Source: Gluconacetobacter tumulicola (GTDB taxonomy: Bacteria; Pseudomonadota; Alphaproteobacteria; Acetobacterales; Acetobacteraceae). From it: a DNA stretch of 64,000 nucleotides. A program made the translations under genes and the position numbers. Position 1 is the stretch's first letter. The number at the start of each line of letters is the position of its first letter. The stretch spans positions 186,001-250,000 of the forward strand of contig NZ_JABEQL010000002.1 in the NCBI RefSeq assembly GCF_014174215.1, read 5' to 3'. Under the pieces are notes generated by a model. It searched no databases and was not told the DNA's origin. It saw only the letters and a program-made list of their open reading frames with translations. Of this stretch, positions 10,256 through 17,592 are shown one piece after another.

Positions 10256-11110
10256 ATGGTCAATTCCGTCATGTTTCCGGGGGGTGCGCGCGTGCCGGCG
10301 CTGGGCATGGGGACCTGGGCGCTGGGCGACAGTGCCGAGCGCCGGACGCAGGAGATCGCCAGCCTGCGGCTGGGCCTGGATCTGGGGTTGCGGGTGGTCG
10401 ATACCGCCGAGATGTACGGGGCCGGGCGGTCGGAGCGGCTGGTGGGCGAGGCGATCGCCGGCCGGCGGGATGAGGTCTTTCTGGTCACGAAGGTGCTGCC
10501 GTCCAATGCCTCGCGCGCCGGGGTGGCGGCGAGTTGCCGGGCGTCGCTTCGGCGGCTGGGCACCGATCGGATCGATCTGTACCTGTTGCACTGGCGGGGG
10601 GCCGTGCCGCTGGGCGAGACGATCGGGGCCTTCGAGCGGCTGAAGCGGGAAGGGCTGATCGGCGCTTGGGGTGTATCGAATTTCGATGTCGGGGATCTGG
10701 ATGACCTGGCGCGCGTCGCCTCGCCCGATCCCTGTGCCGCCAACCAGATCCTCTACAGCCTGGATTATCGCGGGGTGGAATTCGATCTGCTGGAGGCGGA
10801 CCGGCGCCGGTCGATCGTGACCATGGCCTATTCCCCGCTGGGACAGGGCGGGGACCTGCTGCACCAGCCGGTGCTGGAGCGGATCGCGGATCGGCACGAG
10901 ACCAGCCTGGGGCCGGCGACGCCCGCCCAGGTGGCGCTGGCCTGGGTGCTGCGGCAGCCGGGCATGCTGGCAATTCCCAAGGCGGGCAGCCCGCAGCACC
11001 AGCGCGAGAACGTGGCGGCCACCGAGCTGGTGCTGACATCGGAGGATCTGGCGGCGATCGACCGGTCGATCCCGCCGCCGCGACGCAAGGTCCCCCTCGC
11101 CATGATCTGA
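10256..11110 (+). CDS. Aldo/keto reductase (AKR, YeaE/MPO1-like)
   Basis: This is an NADPH-dependent carbonyl reductase of the (beta/alpha)8 AKR fold, 284 residues from MVNSVMFPGGARVPALGMG. The catalytic tetrad is visible: Asp and Tyr in VVDTAEMYGAG, Lys in LVTKVLP and His in LYLLHWRG. The coenzyme region is in AIPKAGSPQHQRENVAA. GAGGAGG about 10 bases before the ATG supports this start; an ATG at 10220 would add 12 residues. Substrate is unknown; such enzymes often reduce methylglyoxal or other aldehydes. It stands alone between holC and the hyf-like cluster. Confidence 0.9.
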   Translation: MVNSVMFPGGARVPALGMGTWALGDSAERRTQEIASLRLGLDLGLRVVDTAEMYGAGRSERLVGEAIAGRRDEVFLVTKVLPSNASRAGVAASCRASLRRLGTDRIDLYLLHWRGAVPLGETIGAFERLKREGLIGAWGVSNFDVGDLDDLARVASPDPCAANQILYSLDYRGVEFDLLEADRRRSIVTMAYSPLGQGGDLLHQPVLERIADRHETSLGPATPAQVALAWVLRQPGMLAIPKAGSPQHQRENVAATELVLTSEDLAAIDRSIPPPRRKVPLAMI

Positions 11111-11180: not shown

Positions 11181-12944
11181 ATGCTTGTGCTGTCGGTGCT
11201 GCTGCTGGACGGCCTGATGCCCCGGTTCGCGGTGCCGCAGGCGGCCCGCGCGGGGTGGGGGCTGGCCCTTGTGCTGGCACTGGCGATGGCCGTCCTTCCT
11301 CCGGGCCCGGTGACGGTTCCTGAAGCGGGGGCGATGGCCCTGTTGCGCGTCGATGCGCTGTCCTTGCCGTTCGTGCTGATCCTGTCGGTGGCCGGCCTGG
11401 CCTCGGGCGAGCGGACGCCGGTGCTGGCCGGCGCGGCGCTGACGGTGGGCACCGGCAATCCCCTCCTGTTTGCGATCGGCGCGGCGGCCTTGTTGCCGTT
11501 TCTGCGGGGCCGGGGCGCCGTGCCGCGTGCCATGGTGGGCTGGGGGAGTGTCGGGGTGGCGACGGCGACTGCCCTGCTGGCGGGGTCGGGCGGCTGGCGG
11601 CTGGTCGTGCTGCCGGTTCCGGCACTGGTGGCGGCCACGGCGCTGATGGGGCTGTCGGTGCGGCCGCTGTCTGGCGCGCGGCATGGCGCGCCTGTCGGGG
11701 TCGCGCATCTGGCGGGGATGGTGGCCGGGCTCTGCCTTGCCGTGCGCATGCTGGTCGATTGGCCCGGGGGGGCGGTCGGCGTCTTCTGGGGGGGCGCGCT
11801 GGTCGTTGTGGGGTTGATGCTGGCCCTGGTGGCGTGTGGACGCGCCCTGGGCGCGCGCGATGCGGGCCGTGTGATGGCCGGCATGCTGGGGGGCTGGGGT
11901 GGCCTGGGGCTACTGCTGGTCGGGCTGGTGGTGACCGGGCGAGCGGATGACCTGCCCTTGCTGGCGCTGGGGGCGTTCCGTGCCCTGATGCTGCTGATGG
12001 GTGGGGTCGGGTTGGCGTTTCTGGCCGCGATCCTGACATTGGCATGGATTGCCGAGGCGGCGGGTTCGCTGGGGCTGATGCGCGCCGGGGGGCTGGCGGC
12101 CCTGATGCCGAAGACGTCGGGCATGCTGGCCCTGGCGCTGGCCGGGGTGTGCGCCCTGCCGCCGTCGGGCGGGTTTGCGGTGGCGTGGCTGCTGGTACAG
12201 TCGTTGCTGGCGCTGCCGCGTGCCGAAGGGCTGGCGGGCGCGATGCCGTTGCTGGCATCGTTGGCCGGGGTCGGGCTGGTATGCGGTCTGTTGATCCTGG
12301 CGGCGGTGCGCCTGTTATCCTGCCTGGTCCTGGGGCGGCCGCGCACGCCGCGTGCTGCCGGGGCGACCGACCCCGCGACGGGAAAGCTGGCGGCGCCGGC
12401 CGTGTGCCTGGGGGGGAGTGCGGTCATGGTGCTCGTGCCCGGAATCTTGCTGTGGCTGACGCGCGGCGCGGGGTGGGACATTGCCGGCCTGCGCGGGACG
12501 ATTCCGTCGGGTGCGCGGCCGGACTGGCTGGCTCTGGCGGCGCCGGGTGGCGGCGGAGTGCTGTATCCGATCGGCATTGTGGTGTTGTTGGGGCTGGCGG
12601 GAGCCGGGGTGCTGGCATTGTCGCGTCTGGCCGGCACGGTGGCGTCGCGCCCGGTGGCGGCCTGGACCGAGGGGGCGCCCCCCTCGCCGCCGTGGATGCC
12701 GTTCGGCGAGCCGGCGGCGCAGGCCGGGCCGGCGCAGTTTGCCGGTGCGCTGGCGTGGGGTCTGGGGGGGGGATGGCCCCTGCGGCGCATCGCATGGCGG
12801 ATGGCGCGCAGGGTACGGGATGCGGGTCGTCGCATGCTGGCGCTGACGGAGGGGGGCGTGGCCTGGGCGTCGCGCCATGCCATGGGGCTGGTGCTGCTGT
12901 GGCTGGCCATGGCGGCGCTGGTCCGGATGTGGGGCCGTTCGTGA
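11181..12944 (+). CDS. hyfB: HyfB-like antiporter subunit of a hydrogenase-4-related membrane complex
   Basis: A very hydrophobic protein of 587 residues with about 14 predicted membrane helices, related to HyfB/HycC and complex I NuoL/M/N. The recognisable core is LALAGVCALPPSGGFAVAWL, matching the family's LPPxxGFxxEW stretch. Usual HyfB proteins are about 670 residues, so this one is short. Family helices normally carry HxxxK and KAGxxPxHxWLP signatures with functional lysines; the matching parts here read LGAFRALMLL and VRPLSGARHGAP, without Lys or the His-Trp pair. The start is uncertain: no Shine-Dalgarno precedes the ATG and a stop lies 36 bases upstream. It overlaps the next gene (TGATG). 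Confidence 0.75.
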   Translation: MLVLSVLLLDGLMPRFAVPQAARAGWGLALVLALAMAVLPPGPVTVPEAGAMALLRVDALSLPFVLILSVAGLASGERTPVLAGAALTVGTGNPLLFAIGAAALLPFLRGRGAVPRAMVGWGSVGVATATALLAGSGGWRLVVLPVPALVAATALMGLSVRPLSGARHGAPVGVAHLAGMVAGLCLAVRMLVDWPGGAVGVFWGGALVVVGLMLALVACGRALGARDAGRVMAGMLGGWGGLGLLLVGLVVTGRADDLPLLALGAFRALMLLMGGVGLAFLAAILTLAWIAEAAGSLGLMRAGGLAALMPKTSGMLALALAGVCALPPSGGFAVAWLLVQSLLALPRAEGLAGAMPLLASLAGVGLVCGLLILAAVRLLSCLVLGRPRTPRAAGATDPATGKLAAPAVCLGGSAVMVLVPGILLWLTRGAGWDIAGLRGTIPSGARPDWLALAAPGGGGVLYPIGIVVLLGLAGAGVLALSRLAGTVASRPVAAWTEGAPPSPPWMPFGEPAAQAGPAQFAGALAWGLGGGWPLRRIAWRMARRVRDAGRRMLALTEGGVAWASRHAMGLVLLWLAMAALVRMWGRS

Positions 12945-13897
12945 TGGTGTCGTGGGCGATGATGTCGGCCGGGATCGTGGGATGCGTGCTGCTGGCGGTG
13001 CATCTGGTGCTGATGGTCGCCTGCGCGCCGCTGGCACGGGGGCTGCTGGCGGCCGGCATGGCCTGGGCGGGCGGTGCCGAGCGTGTCCCTGTGCTGGCGC
13101 GCTGGCGGCTGATCCGGTCCTGCGCGCGCCGGCATGGGGTGCGCGCTGCCGGCGTGGCCGAGATTGCGCCGGCGATGGCGCTGGCGACCGCGCTGGCCGC
13201 CTGTGCGCTGGTGCCGTCCTTCGCGCTCGGTCTGCCGGGAAGCGGGCTTTCGGACCTGCTGACGGTCTCGGGACTGCTGGTGCTGGCGCGCCTGCTGCCA
13301 TTGCTGGCGGCGTTGGCGCCGGGGGGCGCACGGGCCGGATTGGCGTCGGCCGGAGGTGTCGGCGCCCTGGCGGCGATGCAGGCGGTCTTTCCGCTGGCGG
13401 TGGCGGCGGCGGTCATGGCGACCGGGCATGGGGGGATCGATGCCCTGCTGGCGCGGCTGCGCGACCCCGATCCGGGGGGCGGGCGGGTGTCGGCGATGTT
13501 GCTGGCCGTCGCCCTGCTGCTGGCCGGGCCGGATATCGGCCCCGGCGATGATGCGCGCGCGGCGGACATGATGGTCGATCTGGGCGGACGCGGCCGTGCC
13601 GCCATGGAACTGGCGCGGGATCTGGGGCTGATCGCCTGGGTCACGCTGGCGGGGGATCTGGCCTGGCCGGGTGGGCTGGCGATGCCGCGGGACGGGGCGC
13701 TGTTGCCGGCGGCCGCATCGCTGCCGGGCGCCGTGGCGGCATGGCTGGCGCGGATGGGGATGATCTGTGCCGGCATCGTCGCCGCGCGGGTGGTGGTGAT
13801 GGGCTCGGCGCGCGCGGTGCGCGGCCGGCTGGTGCTGGCGCTGCTGTTCGCGGCGCTGGCGGTCGTGGTGCTGTTCGCGGATCAGGAGGTCGCGTGA
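12944..13897 (+). CDS. hyfC: HyfC-like (NuoH-type) membrane subunit
   Basis: The protein has 317 residues, about the length of HyfC/HycD (roughly 310-320), with multiple membrane helices. In the hydrogenase-4 and complex I family this subunit sits between the hydrophilic arm and the proton-translocating arm and forms part of the quinone/E-channel region. An acidic cytoplasmic loop typical of NuoH-type subunits is suggested by DIGPGDDARAADMMVDLGGR followed by GRAAMELARDLGLIAWVTL. The ATG overlaps the stop of the upstream gene and the stop overlaps the next ATG, indicating translational coupling. The assignment rests on length, topology, loop position and gene order. Confidence 0.75.
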   Translation: MVSWAMMSAGIVGCVLLAVHLVLMVACAPLARGLLAAGMAWAGGAERVPVLARWRLIRSCARRHGVRAAGVAEIAPAMALATALAACALVPSFALGLPGSGLSDLLTVSGLLVLARLLPLLAALAPGGARAGLASAGGVGALAAMQAVFPLAVAAAVMATGHGGIDALLARLRDPDPGGGRVSAMLLAVALLLAGPDIGPGDDARAADMMVDLGGRGRAAMELARDLGLIAWVTLAGDLAWPGGLAMPRDGALLPAAASLPGAVAAWLARMGMICAGIVAARVVVMGSARAVRGRLVLALLFAALAVVVLFADQEVA

Positions 13898-14451
13898 TGG
13901 GGTCGCCGCTTCCCGGCCTGCTGATTGCCGCCTCGGTCGTGCTGTCGGGCCTGCGCTGGGCGTTACCCTGGCAGGCCGGGCTGGTGGTGCTGACATTGCT
14001 GGCGGCGGCGCTGGATGTCGAGGCGCCGGTGCGTCCCTGTCTGGCGGCCCTGTTCGTGGTGGCGGGGACGGCGCCGCTGGTATGGGGGCTGGCGCGGCTG
14101 GAGGATCGGCCGCCAGTGCCGACGGAGCGGATATCAGGGGTGGGCGGTGGCCTGATGCTGACGATCCTGGCCGTGCTGGCGGTGCCGCGCGGCCTGATCG
14201 ACGCCGTGACGCGGCCGGACCTGATTGCGGCGCTGGTGGCCATCCTGAGTGGTGTGCTGGCTGCCGCGGTCCGCCGTTCGGTGGTGGGGCAGTGCGCGGG
14301 GCTGGCGGCGGCCCTGAACGGATTGATGCTGCTCGCCGGCCTGGCCGGGCGGGACGCGGTGCTGGCGGGGGCTGTGGCATTGCAGGCGGCGCTGCTGGTG
14401 GTGGCTTTTGTCTGCCTGCGCCGGATCGCCTGGGGGCGGGAACCGACGTGA
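13897..14451 (+). CDS. hyfE: HyfE-like (NuoK-type) small membrane subunit
   Basis: This is a 184-residue hydrophobic protein with about six predicted helices; E. coli HyfE has about 216. The C-terminal part (VVGQCAGLAAALNGLMLLA) resembles the Q-x-x-G-x-x-x-x-x-N-G motif of HyfE and NuoK. The acidic residues that NuoK uses in proton transfer are not obvious here: inside the helices I see few carboxylates. The start MGSPLPGLLIAAS lies on the TGATG junction with the upstream gene, and the stop overlaps the GTG of the next gene. Confidence 0.72.
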   Translation: MGSPLPGLLIAASVVLSGLRWALPWQAGLVVLTLLAAALDVEAPVRPCLAALFVVAGTAPLVWGLARLEDRPPVPTERISGVGGGLMLTILAVLAVPRGLIDAVTRPDLIAALVAILSGVLAAAVRRSVVGQCAGLAAALNGLMLLAGLAGRDAVLAGAVALQAALLVVAFVCLRRIAWGREPT

Positions 14452-15614
14452 GCATTCCGCCTGTTTCGCTGCCGGTGCTGATGCCGCTGGCGCTGTGCTG
14501 GCCGTTCCTGTCGATGGGGGTGCTGGCGGCCTGCTCGCCGGCTTCGGCGCGGGCGGCGGGGGTGGGTCTGTCGGCGGTCGGGCTGGGGCTGGCTGCCCTG
14601 GCGGTGGCGTTGCGGAGCGTCTGGCCGGGGACGCCCTTTGCCGTGCCGCCCGGCGCGTTGGGACTTCTGCTGCCGCTGCCGCTGCTGGCGCTGTTCCTGG
14701 CCTGTCTGTCGGCCGACATGGCGCCGGGACGGCGGGGGACGGGCGTGCTGATGCATGGGCTGGCCGGTGGCGCGGCCGTTGCCACCGCCTGCGCCGATCC
14801 GCTGTCGGGCGCGGTCGCGGTTGGCGGGGTGGCGATGCTGGTGGCGCTGGCGACCGCCGTGACGCGTGGCGCGGCACGGGCGGGGTGGGATCTTTTTCGC
14901 CTCAGCCTGTCCGGCATCCTGCTGGCCGTGCCCGGTGCCGCACTGTTGGCGGCGTCCGACGCGGCGGGGCGGCTGGAAGGGCTGGGGGGGCTGTTGCTGA
15001 CGGTCGGGCTGGGGACTGTCGCGGGGCTGGGGCCAGCCGCCCCGGTCGTGCTGGCGGCAGGGGATGCGGTGGCGCCCATGGCCCTGGCGCCGGTCATGAC
15101 CGCGATCCCGGTGCTGCGTCATCTGGCGCAGGGCCAGGACCGGATAGGGGTGATGGCGCTGGGGCTGGTGACGCTGTGGCTGATGGCGCTTTCCATCCGC
15201 GTGGCGCCCCCGGAGCGGCGGGGCCGGCTGTCGGTCGGGTTGATGATCGGCCTGGCGGCGGTAGCGGCCGGAGCGGGTGGTGGTGCCGGTCTGGCGGGAT
15301 TGGTGGCGTTGCTGCTGTCGGTCGCGCTGATGGGGCCGCTGGCGCGGCAGGCGGGGCCCGACCGGCATGGGCCGTGGGATGGGAGCCTTGCGCCCTTGAT
15401 CCATTCGCCGTTCCTGCCGTTCGGGGGGGTGGTGCTGACGCTGGTTGCGCTGTGCGATGTGGCGCCGATGCTGGTGCTGCCGATGGCGGTCGGGGTGGTG
15501 GTCGGCAGCCCGCTGCCTGTCGGTGGCGCGGTCCGGACGGGCTGGCTGGGACGGGGCGTGACCGCCATGCTGCTGGGCGGTCTGGTGGTGCTGGTGCTGC
15601 GAGGGTGGCGATGA
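14448..15614 (+). CDS. hyfF: HyfF-like antiporter subunit, shortened
   Basis: The protein starts with GTG in a GTGA overlap and has 388 residues, whereas HyfF in E. coli has about 520, so roughly a quarter is missing. It is almost entirely hydrophobic with about ten helices. The segment GPAAPVVLAAGDAVAPMALA occupies the place of the family's KxGxxPxHxWLPxAxxxAP signature. It lacks the lysine, the His-Trp and the LP pair but keeps the AP spacing. It ends with a basic Arg-Gly-Trp-Arg tail whose stop overlaps the next ATG (ATGA). It is probably an evolved structural remnant of an antiporter subunit; active proton pumping by it is doubtful. Confidence 0.68.
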   Translation: MSIPPVSLPVLMPLALCWPFLSMGVLAACSPASARAAGVGLSAVGLGLAALAVALRSVWPGTPFAVPPGALGLLLPLPLLALFLACLSADMAPGRRGTGVLMHGLAGGAAVATACADPLSGAVAVGGVAMLVALATAVTRGAARAGWDLFRLSLSGILLAVPGAALLAASDAAGRLEGLGGLLLTVGLGTVAGLGPAAPVVLAAGDAVAPMALAPVMTAIPVLRHLAQGQDRIGVMALGLVTLWLMALSIRVAPPERRGRLSVGLMIGLAAVAAGAGGGAGLAGLVALLLSVALMGPLARQAGPDRHGPWDGSLAPLIHSPFLPFGGVVLTLVALCDVAPMLVLPMAVGVVVGSPLPVGGAVRTGWLGRGVTAMLLGGLVVLVLRGWR

Positions 15615-17119
15615 TCCGCGCCGAGCCCGATCCGGCCCCGCGTACGGCCGCCGCGCTGATCCGGCGCGGGGAGGCTGAAGCCGGCGGGTGGCGCTTCCGG
15701 CTGGAGGAGGAAGGCTGGCACGATCTGGCCGAGGCGCTGCGGCATGACCCGCTGCCGTTCGTGACCCTGTGGGCCGATGGGCGGGATGTGCATGCCCTGT
15801 TCCTGGAGGGGGGCGAGCGCCCGCTGGTGGCGAGCGTCGAACCCTATGGCGGGCGCTATCTGGGCCTGTCCCCGGCGCGTCCGGCGGCGGCACCGTTCGA
15901 GCGTTGCGTGCAGGATCTGTGGGGGTTTTCGGCGATGGAGGCGCGGGATGTGCGTCCATGGCTGGACCATGGGCTCTGGACCGCGACCTGGCCGCTGAGT
16001 GCGCGTCCGGGGCCGGCCGCCTGGCCGCCCGACCCGCCGGATTTTCGGCCGGTGCCGGGCGAATGCATGATCCTGGGCAGCGGGCCGGCCGATGGCGGGC
16101 ACCATACGCCGGCCCATCTGCGTCTGGCGGTGGATGGCGGGGGCGTGGTCGGGCAGGCCGAATGGCGGTTGGGCTATGCGCATCGTGGGGTGGTGGCCCG
16201 GCTGGTGGGGCTGGATGCCGATGGTGCGGTGCGGTTGGCCGGGCGGGCCGTCGCCGGGGCGTCGGTCGCCCATCAATCGGCGCTGTGCCGGGCGATCGAG
16301 GCGGCGACAGGGCAGGCTGCCGATGCCGCCACCGTGCGCACACGCGTGCTGCTGACGGAAATCGAGCGGGCGGCGACGCATCTGCATGATCTGTCGCGCG
16401 CGGCGCGGGCGGCCGGAGGGGCGGGTCTGGCGGCGGAATGCGAGCGGCTGCGCGAGGCGATCCTGGACCAGTGCGGCCGAATCGGCGGCCACCGGCTGCT
16501 GATGGACCGGGTTTGCCCCGGTGGAGCGGGCGAACCGGCGATGGATGACGCGGCCGTTGCCATCGGCGACCGGGTGGTGGATCTGCTGGAGGCCGGCCGG
16601 GCCGCGCTGGTGCGTTGTCGGGGGTGGCCGGGGCTGGAGGCGCGCATTGCCGGAGTGGGCGTGCTGGACCAGTCGGCGGCGCGGGCGCTGGGCGTGGGGG
16701 GCGTCGTGGGCCGGGCGTCGGCGCGCGAGGAGGATCTGCGGCGGCTGGTGCCGGGCTATCGGCGCGAATGGCTGGATAGCGGCGTGCGGCGCGGTGGTGA
16801 TGTGGCGGCGCGCACCGACCTTCGGCTGACGGAGCTGGGCGGCGTCGCGCGGCTGTTGCGGGCGGCGGCCGGCAGCATGCCGGATGCCGGGTGGAGGCAG
16901 CAGGCTGTCGGTGAGGGAGTTGGCTTTGCCGAGGGACCGCGCGGCGCGGTGTGGTATTGGGTTCGTATGGTCGATGGCCGTGTTGCGGCGGCGCATGCGT
17001 GCGACCCCGCGCTGGCCCAGGCCTGTGCGTTGGAGCATGTGCTGGTTGGGGCGCAGGCCGAGGATGTGGCGATGATCGTGCGTTCGTTCGGCTTCTCGGC
17101 CGCCGGGGCGGACCTGTAG
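15611..17119 (+). CDS. hyfG: HyfG-like large subunit (NuoC-NuoD fusion) without [NiFe] cysteine ligands
   Basis: The 502-residue protein has an N-terminal NuoC-like domain (about 1-130) and a C-terminal NuoD/hydrogenase-large-subunit domain (about 150-500) starting around HHTPAHLRLAVDGGG and RLGYAHRGVVARL. In true group 4 hydrogenases the next motif is RxCGxCSxxH; here it reads RAVAGASVAHQSALCRAIE (residues 212-230). That aligns without gaps and replaces both cysteines by Val214 and Ala217. The C-terminal DPCxxC is replaced by GFSAAG at the very end, resembling NuoD. With all four nickel ligands absent it cannot hold a normal [NiFe] site. It fits the energy-converting hydrogenase-related (Ehr) class. 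The start is an ATGA overlap. Confidence 0.8.
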   Translation: MIRAEPDPAPRTAAALIRRGEAEAGGWRFRLEEEGWHDLAEALRHDPLPFVTLWADGRDVHALFLEGGERPLVASVEPYGGRYLGLSPARPAAAPFERCVQDLWGFSAMEARDVRPWLDHGLWTATWPLSARPGPAAWPPDPPDFRPVPGECMILGSGPADGGHHTPAHLRLAVDGGGVVGQAEWRLGYAHRGVVARLVGLDADGAVRLAGRAVAGASVAHQSALCRAIEAATGQAADAATVRTRVLLTEIERAATHLHDLSRAARAAGGAGLAAECERLREAILDQCGRIGGHRLLMDRVCPGGAGEPAMDDAAVAIGDRVVDLLEAGRAALVRCRGWPGLEARIAGVGVLDQSAARALGVGGVVGRASAREEDLRRLVPGYRREWLDSGVRRGGDVAARTDLRLTELGGVARLLRAAAGSMPDAGWRQQAVGEGVGFAEGPRGAVWYWVRMVDGRVAAAHACDPALAQACALEHVLVGAQAEDVAMIVRSFGFSAAGADL

Positions 17120-17130
17120 GGAGGCGATTC

Positions 17131-17592
17131 TTGGCGCTGTTGCGTGCGATTCTGGCGCGTGGATCTGCCATCCGCCTGCCGGCCGTGGGGCCGATGGCGG
17201 TGTTTCACGTGGATACAGGCGGGTGCGAGGGATGCGCGATGGAGGTCTCGGCGCTGGACGGGGCGGCCTATGCGCTGTCGGCGACGGGCCTGCGTTTCGT
17301 GACGACGCCGCGCCTGGCCGATGTGCTGCTGGTGACCGGGCCGCTGACCCGCGCCATGGCCCCGGTGCTGGAGGCGACATGGCATGCCATGCCCGATCCG
17401 AGGGCGCTGGTGGCGGTTGGGGCCTGCGCGATCGATGGCGGCCCGTTTGGGGAGAATTATGCCGTTCTGGGCGGGCTGGAGGGTCGGGCGCCGCTGGATG
17501 CGTCGATCCCCGGCTGTCCGCCTTCGCCGGCTTCCATCGTCGCCGGGCTGGCGGCGTTGCTGGAGGCCTCCGGATTGTCTTCCTCGGCCTGA
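17131..17592 (+). CDS. hyfI: HyfI-like small Fe-S subunit (NuoB family)
   Basis: The protein has 153 residues. The NuoB/hydrogenase small subunit family carries the [4Fe-4S] cluster nearest the active site. Four cysteines are present in family order: two in DTGGCEGCAMEV, one in AVGACAIDGG and one in SIPGCPPSP, so the cluster appears intact. I chose TTG at 17131 because AGGGAGG stands 5-6 bases before it and no ATG lies near the conserved N terminus; the open frame upstream is shadow of hyfG. The last 136 bases overlap the 3' end of the convergent pssA. No ferredoxin-like hyfA/hyfH gene accompanies it. Confidence 0.8.
   Translation: MALLRAILARGSAIRLPAVGPMAVFHVDTGGCEGCAMEVSALDGAAYALSATGLRFVTTPRLADVLLVTGPLTRAMAPVLEATWHAMPDPRALVAVGACAIDGGPFGENYAVLGGLEGRAPLDASIPGCPPSPASIVAGLAALLEASGLSSSA

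What the first reader, a model, noticed from the sequence alone, without database searches (positions are those of the whole stretch)
11181..17592. Hydrogenase-4-like complex that has lost the [NiFe] active site
Seen: six coupled genes in hyfB-C-E-F-G-I order. In the large subunit the first nickel motif RxCGxC aligns without gaps to RAVAGAS (Cys to Val214 and Ala217) and the C-terminal DPCxxC to GFSAAG. The small subunit keeps all four Fe-S cysteines. Known: group 4 hydrogenases need the four cysteines; Ehr complexes lack them. No ferredoxin-like hyfA/hyfH and no hyp maturation genes are nearby. Inference: a membrane redox or ion-linked complex with an unknown electron donor or acceptor, perhaps a quinone. 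The role in an acetic acid bacterium is, as far as I know, undescribed.
Basis: partly seen in the sequence, partly recalled or inferred. Interest (0 to 1): 0.78.

Follow-up and report, generated by a model that had tools for sequence, protein, structure and literature searches.

The report
Respiratory complex stripped of its machinery
Acetic acid bacteria keep a six-protein membrane complex related to respiratory complex I that has lost its nickel site and most of the conserved charged residues thought to move ions, yet its genes still look preserved by selection, so it probably does a different, unknown job.

Summary
In detail: 11181-17592 is a coupled hyfB-C-E-F-G-I operon in a Gluconacetobacter; the large subunit lacks the nickel cysteines, the small subunit keeps four Fe-S cysteines. 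It belongs to the known Ehr (energy-converting-hydrogenase-related) kind. 'Ion-linked, perhaps quinone' is weakly supported for this version: at 15 scored membrane positions, ordinary relatives (64 loci) match at 85-100%, the window at 0 of 15 (all ten HyfB/HyfE/HyfF Lys/Glu gone; two Asp remain in HyfC). Of 118 classified loci 64 are intact, 50 eroded, 4 between. In a tree of 72 Ehr rows erosion arose at least four times inside one Acetobacteraceae lineage (Ehr-B); four of four two-copy genomes read have an intact Ehr-A beside an eroded or partly eroded Ehr-B. 215 of 249 family genomes have a HyfG-type gene, intact or eroded. dN/dS is mostly 0.1-0.5. In one genus (3 of 3 genomes) three of four Fe-S cysteines are lost too, with dN/dS 0.09-0.37. 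Best reading: a non-pumping Ehr derivative, probably a membrane-anchored Fe-S relay or sensor, possibly a cofactor-optional scaffold. HypD is in only 43 of 249. Ten literature searches found no description.

The parts
11181..12944 (+). hyfB/EhrA-like antiporter-like membrane subunit, 587 aa (P0001)
   Evidence: NCBIfam HyfB 2.2e-11, below its cut-off; AF2 pLDDT 82.7, best PDB matches HycC 7z0t_C/7z0s_C, TMq 0.67/0.70; TM5 Glu, TM7 Lys, TM8 Lys, HALFK Lys and TM12 Glu all replaced
12944..13897 (+). hyfC/EhrB-like (NuoH-like) membrane subunit, 317 aa
   Evidence: profile match; acidic loop of intact Ehr shortened and altered, two or three Asp still align by alignment used
13897..14451 (+). hyfE/EhrC-like (NuoK-like) membrane subunit, 184 aa
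   Evidence: profile match; ENG Glu replaced by Leu
14448..15614 (+). hyfF/EhrD-like antiporter-like membrane subunit, 388 aa, GTG start
   Evidence: profile match; four Lys/Glu positions read G, V, G, V; no Lys in the protein
15611..17119 (+). hyfG/EhrL-like large subunit, 502 aa (P0005)
   Evidence: best PDB sequence match HycE 6.1e-20; AF2 pLDDT 85.6, pTM 0.89, Foldseek 7z0s_E TMq 0.83; no Ni cysteines
17131..17592 (+). hyfI/EhrS-like small subunit, 153 aa from TTG; four [4Fe-4S] cysteines kept
   Evidence: Oxidored_q6 5.7e-27; HycG 1.5e-28; GGAGG at 17120-17124
10256..11110 (+). aldo/keto reductase directly upstream, often syntenic; not shown to be part of the complex
   Evidence: Pfam Aldo_ket_red 1.4e-53; next to the hyfB place in many eroded loci, in L031, and beside an intact copy in L070; not found there in the small-genome loci L064, L071, L072, L074, L075

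Best explanation
The operon encodes a six-subunit Ehr-type complex (HyfB, C, E, F, G, I) of an Acetobacteraceae lineage, here called Ehr-B, that has been disconnected from ion pumping. Shown by sequence: predicted folds of HyfB and HyfG and the gene order of a formate-hydrogenlyase / complex I relative are kept; nickel ligands, the large-subunit H-E-H loop and the conserved membrane Lys/Glu of HyfB, HyfE and HyfF are lost; the HyfC acidic loop is cut down; one [4Fe-4S] site in HyfI is kept in most lineages; dN/dS is below 1 in all six genes. Inferred: the four membrane subunits now act as a hydrophobic anchor, and HyfG-HyfI form a membrane-docked one-cluster electron relay or redox sensor for an unidentified partner, without ion translocation and without complex I-type quinone chemistry. 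Likelihood by step: Ehr derivative about 0.95; no canonical ion pumping about 0.75; Fe-S relay or sensor rather than non-redox scaffold about 0.5.
For: Match to 15 conserved membrane residues is bimodal: 64 loci at 0.85-1.0, 50 at 0.34 or less, 4 between (groups are defined by this score). In the 50 eroded loci no Lys is left at the three HyfB and two HyfF Lys positions (0 of 37, 0 of 43), TM5 Glu in 1 of 37 and 2 of 43, HyfE Glu in 0 of 41. The loop and Fe-S positions were not used for grouping: H-E-H in 64 of 64 intact and 0 of 50 eroded; HyfI CCCC in 59 of 59 intact and 42 of 46 eroded. Hydropathy segments hardly change (HyfB 14.1 vs 14.3, HyfF 11.7 vs 11.3, HyfC 7.9 vs 7.2, HyfE 6.2 vs 6.4). 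Models match FHL subunits. dN/dS of the six genes against 11 Gluconacetobacter loci is 0.10-0.58 apart from one poorly aligned HyfC (0.83); HyfI is the lowest of the six in 7 of 11. Relocated hyfI genes (G014, G021, G035, G074, G082, G226, G261) are still open.
Against: No partner, substrate or phenotype is known. In genus g124 (3 of 3 genomes) HyfI has lost three of four cysteines yet dN/dS is 0.09-0.37 in the five subunits measured, so there the role cannot need the cluster; G014 lost Cys1 and L117 Cys4. Total charged residues in hydropathy segments of HyfB and HyfF are not lower in eroded loci (6.5 vs 6.1 and 3.7 vs 3.8 counting Arg and His; Asp+Glu+Lys fall from 3.5 to 2.1 and 2.8 to 1.3). 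In HyfC an acid stays in 20 and 23 of 50 eroded loci at two of five positions. His2 of the loop stays in 26 of 50. Eroded pairs have higher dN/dS than intact pairs outside the family (0.03-0.19), though like intact Acetobacteraceae pairs (0.06-0.53); one eroded pair reaches 0.65 in HyfE at small dS.
Confidence: 0.5

Rival explanations
1. Cofactor-optional scaffold: the complex no longer does redox chemistry; it organises the membrane or holds another protein, and the Fe-S cluster is at most structural.
For: Genus g124 lacks three of four HyfI cysteines in 3 of 3 genomes with dN/dS 0.09-0.37; other active-site features already lost; eroded copies occur in genomes of about 2 Mb.
Against: 42 of 46 eroded HyfI sequences keep CCCC and HyfI has the lowest dN/dS of the six in 7 of 11 comparisons, which a pure scaffold would not require.
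Confidence: 0.33
2. Still an ion-translocating or quinone-linked Ehr, with compensating residues (for example arginines) that the alignment does not recognise.
For: Predicted HyfB fold and segment count are kept; total membrane charge including Arg is unchanged in HyfB and HyfF; HyfC keeps some Asp; Arg residues occur in several predicted HyfB helices.
Against: Replacements differ between eroded loci; the gene in the hyfB place is only about 440-470 aa and unrecognised by the profile in several genera; the window's HyfC, HyfE and HyfF have no lysine and HyfB has two, at 311 and 402.
Confidence: 0.15
3. Plain decay: a non-functional operon on its way out.
For: High divergence; G012, apparently close to G. 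diazotrophicus, has hyfG and hyfC split into two frames; no match in 34 of 249 family genomes.
Against: Open genes in most loci read, dN/dS below 1, survival of relocated hyfI, presence in small genomes.
Confidence: 0.05

Closest known systems
Ehr (Ech-hydrogenase-related complex; e.g. Geobacter sulfurreducens GSU0739-45)
   Same: NuoL-like, HyfE-like, large and small subunits named in passages of PMC7894505; absent Ni cysteines; Fe-S small subunit; nested among intact Ehr-like clusters in trees.
   Different: The window's version has also lost the HyfB/HyfE/HyfF Lys/Glu set and the H-E-H loop that intact relatives keep. No Geobacter sequence was compared here; the full published subunit list is recalled.
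E. coli hydrogenase-4 (Hyf) and formate hydrogenlyase (Hyc)
   Same: Gene order B-C-E-F-G-I and subunit folds.
   Different: No HyfA, HyfD, HyfH or HyfJ in the operon; no [NiFe] cysteines; membrane Lys/Glu replaced.
Respiratory complex I (Nuo)
   Same: NuoD, NuoB and NuoM-type homology.
   Different: No NADH module genes in the operon; the tyrosine of the NuoD RLDY motif is Gly or Ala in 15 of 15 Ehr rows aligned, and the GPxH histidine is Asp in the window (roles recalled).

Membership tests
Ehr complex | NuoL-like and HyfE-like membrane subunits with large and small subunits | tested here: met
   subunits named in PMC7894505 passages, which list four of them and seven loci
Ehr complex | Lacks the CxxC nickel ligands | tested here: met
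   definition from passages of PMC10284858 and PMC10432482
Ehr complex | Phylogenetic position among Ehr | tested here: inconclusive
   nested in Cys-less relatives with E. coli Hyf/Hyc as outgroup; no published Ehr reference sequence was included
Ehr complex | Antiporter-like membrane arm with proton-path residues (suspected charge translocation, PMC6349859) | tested here: not met
   HyfB/HyfE/HyfF residues lost, HyfC loop cut down; HyfB fold kept. A derived, probably uncoupled Ehr rather than a typical one
Group 4 [NiFe]-hydrogenase / hydrogenase-4 | Two CxxC pairs in the large subunit | tested here: not met
Group 4 [NiFe]-hydrogenase / hydrogenase-4 | hyp maturation co-occurs | tested here: not met
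   HypD in 43 of 249 vs HyfG in 215 of 249; the window's own genome does have hypD
Complex I | Quinone-binding His/Tyr in NuoD | tested here: not met
   (residue roles recalled; one of the genome's two NuoD genes was aligned)
Ehr complex | Electron donor/acceptor activity | not testable with these tools
   needs biochemistry

The most novel reading that the evidence does not exclude
A complete complex-I-superfamily assembly has become a cofactor-optional, non-pumping membrane protein: one of two Ehr lineages lost its catalytic and coupling features stepwise and more than once, but was kept as a widespread component with a new structural or regulatory role; in one genus even the last Fe-S cluster is gone.
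Probability: 0.33. Interest if true: 0.87.

Novelty: new variant of a known kind. Interest (0 to 1): 0.72.

Why it matters
Which residues of complex I relatives carry protons, and what the peripheral arm does without them, is a long-standing question. Here nature has removed such residues in a graded series: intact, partly eroded and fully eroded clusters, with intact and eroded copies in one genome. Swapping subunits or residues between them would test coupling models directly. It also points to an undescribed component, common in acetic acid bacteria used for vinegar and cellulose, that hydrogenase or NADH dehydrogenase names would mislead about.

Tried and rejected
Considered and rejected: cysteine ligands elsewhere in HyfG (nine Cys in P0005, none at the four ligand positions); strict hyp co-occurrence; aldo/keto reductase as obligate partner (not found beside the cluster in L064, L071, L072, L074, L075); conserved TRAP-transporter or HTH neighbours (each in three loci; names recalled). 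The hyfI-nrtR link may be a trace of gene order rather than function.

Weak points. The gene in the hyfB place in several genera is not recognised by the profile and is left out of the HyfB tally (37 of 50 eroded loci counted). Intact and eroded groups are defined by the membrane score itself (>= 0.85, <= 0.34); the bimodal histogram is the evidence, not the near-invariance inside a group. Of 165 loci scored, 20 hand-listed duplicates and 27 with fewer than five readable positions were dropped, leaving 118; related species still count separately. HyfC letters depend on the alignment: three aligned Asp in the window (six positions), two (five positions). Trees were quick searches with SH-aLRT only; the first (113 rows) flagged long branches, the second used a mixture model on 74 rows that I chose. 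dN/dS is Nei-Gojobori; several values were saturated (nan). The 215 of 249 counts any HyfG-type match at E <= 1e-12, intact or eroded, and includes at least one probable real hydrogenase (G066). Outside the family a match of 6.9e-16 (G056) was not identified. Two-copy genomes were picked from the list; others with several matches (for example G119, G186, G130, and genus g120) were not read for membrane genes. each drew 249 family genomes with coinciding handles; I take them as one set.

Literature: searches gave no description of this complex in Acetobacteraceae; the library lacks most subscription journals and supplements could not be read. Papers seen as passages only: PMC6349859, PMC10284858, PMC7894505, PMC10432482, PMC9368920 (the last had no hydrogenase term). 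The 2013 paper by Marreiros and co-workers was seen only as a reference-list entry.
Full report
What is there. The window lies in a Gluconacetobacter genome: its HyfG is 97% identical to that of G. aggeris and 95% to G. asukensis. Between an aldo/keto reductase gene (10256-11110; Pfam 1.4e-53) and convergent pssA/psd genes lie six genes on the + strand, hyfB-C-E-F-G-I, with overlapping stop and start codons at four of five junctions and an 11-bp gap before hyfI, which I start at TTG 17131 after a GGAGG site.

What it belongs to. HyfG and HyfI match the E. coli formate hydrogenlyase large and small subunits best among solved structures. AlphaFold models of HyfG (pLDDT 85.6, pTM 0.89) and HyfB (82.7, 0.84) match HycE (TMq 0.83) and HycC (TMq 0.67-0.70) best. 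The gene set resembles that of Ehr complexes as named in passages of PMC7894505, and lack of the CxxC nickel ligands is the published mark of Ehr (passages of PMC10284858, PMC10432482, PMC6349859). Those passages call the function unknown or suspected. Loss of nickel is therefore not the novelty.

How widespread it is. A HyfG-type gene, intact or eroded, is found in 215 of 249 family genomes and 87 of 102 genera at E <= 1e-12; inside the family the strongest match that I read as NuoD has 7.7e-10. At least one of the 215 (G066) looks like a real hydrogenase. Genomes of about 2 Mb are among the positives. Profiles find all six genes in 88 of 134 loci, many of the rest being contig ends, displaced genes or very divergent copies. 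Flanks are unrelated among most intact loci, while many acetic acid bacteria share one flank (pepA, holC, aldo/keto reductase; pssA, psd). HypD occurs in only 43 of 249 family genomes, so hyp genes do not track the cluster, although the window genome has hypD and a [NiFe]-hydrogenase large subunit on contig C6.

What it has lost. I scored 15 membrane positions (16), three loop positions, four nickel positions and four Fe-S positions, taken from E. coli Hyf proteins. Of 118 loci with at least five readable membrane positions, 64 match at 85% or more, 50 at 34% or less, four lie between (L120, L204, L206, L208). The intact ones come from Acetobacteraceae, other Alpha-, Beta- and Gammaproteobacteria, Nitrospirae and others: HyfB TM7 Lys 55 of 55, HALFK Lys 57 of 57, TM12 Glu 58 of 58, TM5 Glu 54 of 54, TM8 Lys 48 of 55 (Asn in 7); HyfF Lys 64 of 64 at both positions; HyfE Glu 64 of 64. 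Grouping uses these positions, so the independent check is the loop: H-E-H in 64 of 64 intact and in 0 of 50 eroded loci. In eroded loci no Lys remains at the three HyfB and two HyfF Lys positions (37 and 43 loci); TM5 Glu is kept in 1 of 37 HyfB and 2 of 43 HyfF; HyfE Glu in 0 of 41. HyfC is less clear-cut: two positions are gapped in 44 and 46 of 50, but an acid remains in 20 and 23 of 50 at two others. The window scores 0 of 15 identical, with Asp at two HyfC positions. Segment counts hardly change, and total membrane charge including Arg does not fall in HyfB and HyfF. Against one NuoD of the same genome, the RLDY tyrosine is Gly or Ala in 15 of 15 Ehr rows and the GPxH histidine is Asp in the window (roles recalled). 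In G021 and G035 the loop is deleted.

What it keeps. HyfI reads CCCC in 129 of 136 loci, in 42 of 46 eroded ones. The exceptions are three genomes of one genus (GCGS), G014 (SCCC), L117 (CCCS) and two incomplete ends. dN/dS between the window and 11 Gluconacetobacter loci lies between 0.10 and 0.58 for the six genes, apart from one poorly aligned HyfC (0.83); HyfI is lowest in 7 of 11, HyfE in 4. The control pepA gave 0.00-0.27 and the aldo/keto reductase 0.13-0.57. Nine further eroded pairs, two of them Gluconacetobacter, gave 0.08-0.42 where dS was not saturated; six intact pairs gave 0.03-0.53, lowest outside the family. The three cysteine-poor genomes gave 0.09-0.37 in five subunits (HyfE was not recognised there); two other pairs with eroded or intermediate copies gave 0.15-0.65.

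How it evolved. In a tree of 111 HyfG+HyfI rows plus two of E. coli, 46 of 47 loop-eroded rows form one clade (SH-aLRT 99) inside intact Acetobacteraceae rows; L120 stands apart. A 74-row tree with a mixture model and some second copies shows two lineages in the family: Ehr-A, grouped (support 81) with Bradyrhizobium, Pinisolibacter and Acidisoma, and Ehr-B, a clade of 48 rows (SH-aLRT 100) from Acetobacteraceae, Roseomonadaceae and unplaced Rhodospirillales MAGs. In this sample erosion is confined to Ehr-B and needs four changes of state (main clade of 29 rows, SH-aLRT 99; L208; L206; L120). In four of four two-copy genomes that I read (G225, G112, G149, G135) the Ehr-A copy is intact at every readable position and the Ehr-B copy is partly or fully eroded. 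The window genome has a single copy, the eroded one.

How it most likely works. Without nickel, without the intact loop and without the HyfB/HyfE/HyfF Lys/Glu set, canonical coupling is unlikely. What is conserved is a hydrophobic membrane platform, the HyfG-HyfI pair and, in most lineages, one Fe-S site. I favour a membrane-docked electron relay or redox sensor for an unidentified partner. The three cysteine-poor genomes show that in at least one lineage the complex is kept without its cluster, which favours a scaffold; I give that reading one third. A lead, not evidence: in seven loci (L046, L048, L189-L193) hyfI overlaps by four bases a gene with an NrtR winged-helix domain (for L046), followed by nadA-nadB-nadC in five of the seven.

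Novelty. A new variant of a known kind. I found no paper describing it in ten searches of an open-access library.

Noticed in passing
window 11181-17592 and L079-L088: The complex is almost free of lysine: 2 in 2,148 residues in the window, 0 in G. aggeris, G. sacchari, G. diazotrophicus, G. johannae and Novacetimonas cocois, against 1.33% in 51 other window genes (five of which, 112-361 aa, also have none) and 0.8-1.81% in six intact Ehr.
   Followed up: partly
L046, L048, L189-L193: hyfI overlaps a gene of an NrtR-like regulator by 4 bases; in five of these seven loci nadA-nadB-nadC follow.
   Followed up: partly
L073, L195, L196 (G234, G136, G192): HyfI lacks three of four Fe-S cysteines in 3 of 3 genomes of one genus while dN/dS stays low.
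   Followed up: yes
L204-L211: Four genomes carry two Ehr clusters, one intact and one partly or fully eroded.
   Followed up: yes
window 10256-11110: An aldo/keto reductase gene stands before hyfB in many acetic acid bacteria, overlaps it by one base in L031 (starts from my gene caller), and also stands before an intact Ehr-B in L070.
   Followed up: partly
L026 (G012): hyfG and hyfC are each split into two frames in a genome apparently close to G. diazotrophicus; sequencing error or real break not resolved.
   Followed up: no
L165 (G066): A 1.9 Mb family member has a large subunit that keeps the C-terminal nickel cysteines, with hypD about 8 kb away: possibly a real group 4 hydrogenase.
   Followed up: no
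L099, L110: MAGs titled Terriglobia and Asaia bogorensis carry Ehr-B copies that group with other Acetobacteraceae rows; the titles may be wrong.
   Followed up: no
G000 C1 136681 and C6 79496: The window genome has two NuoD genes (open frames of 438 and 597 aa), suggesting two complex I copies.
   Followed up: no
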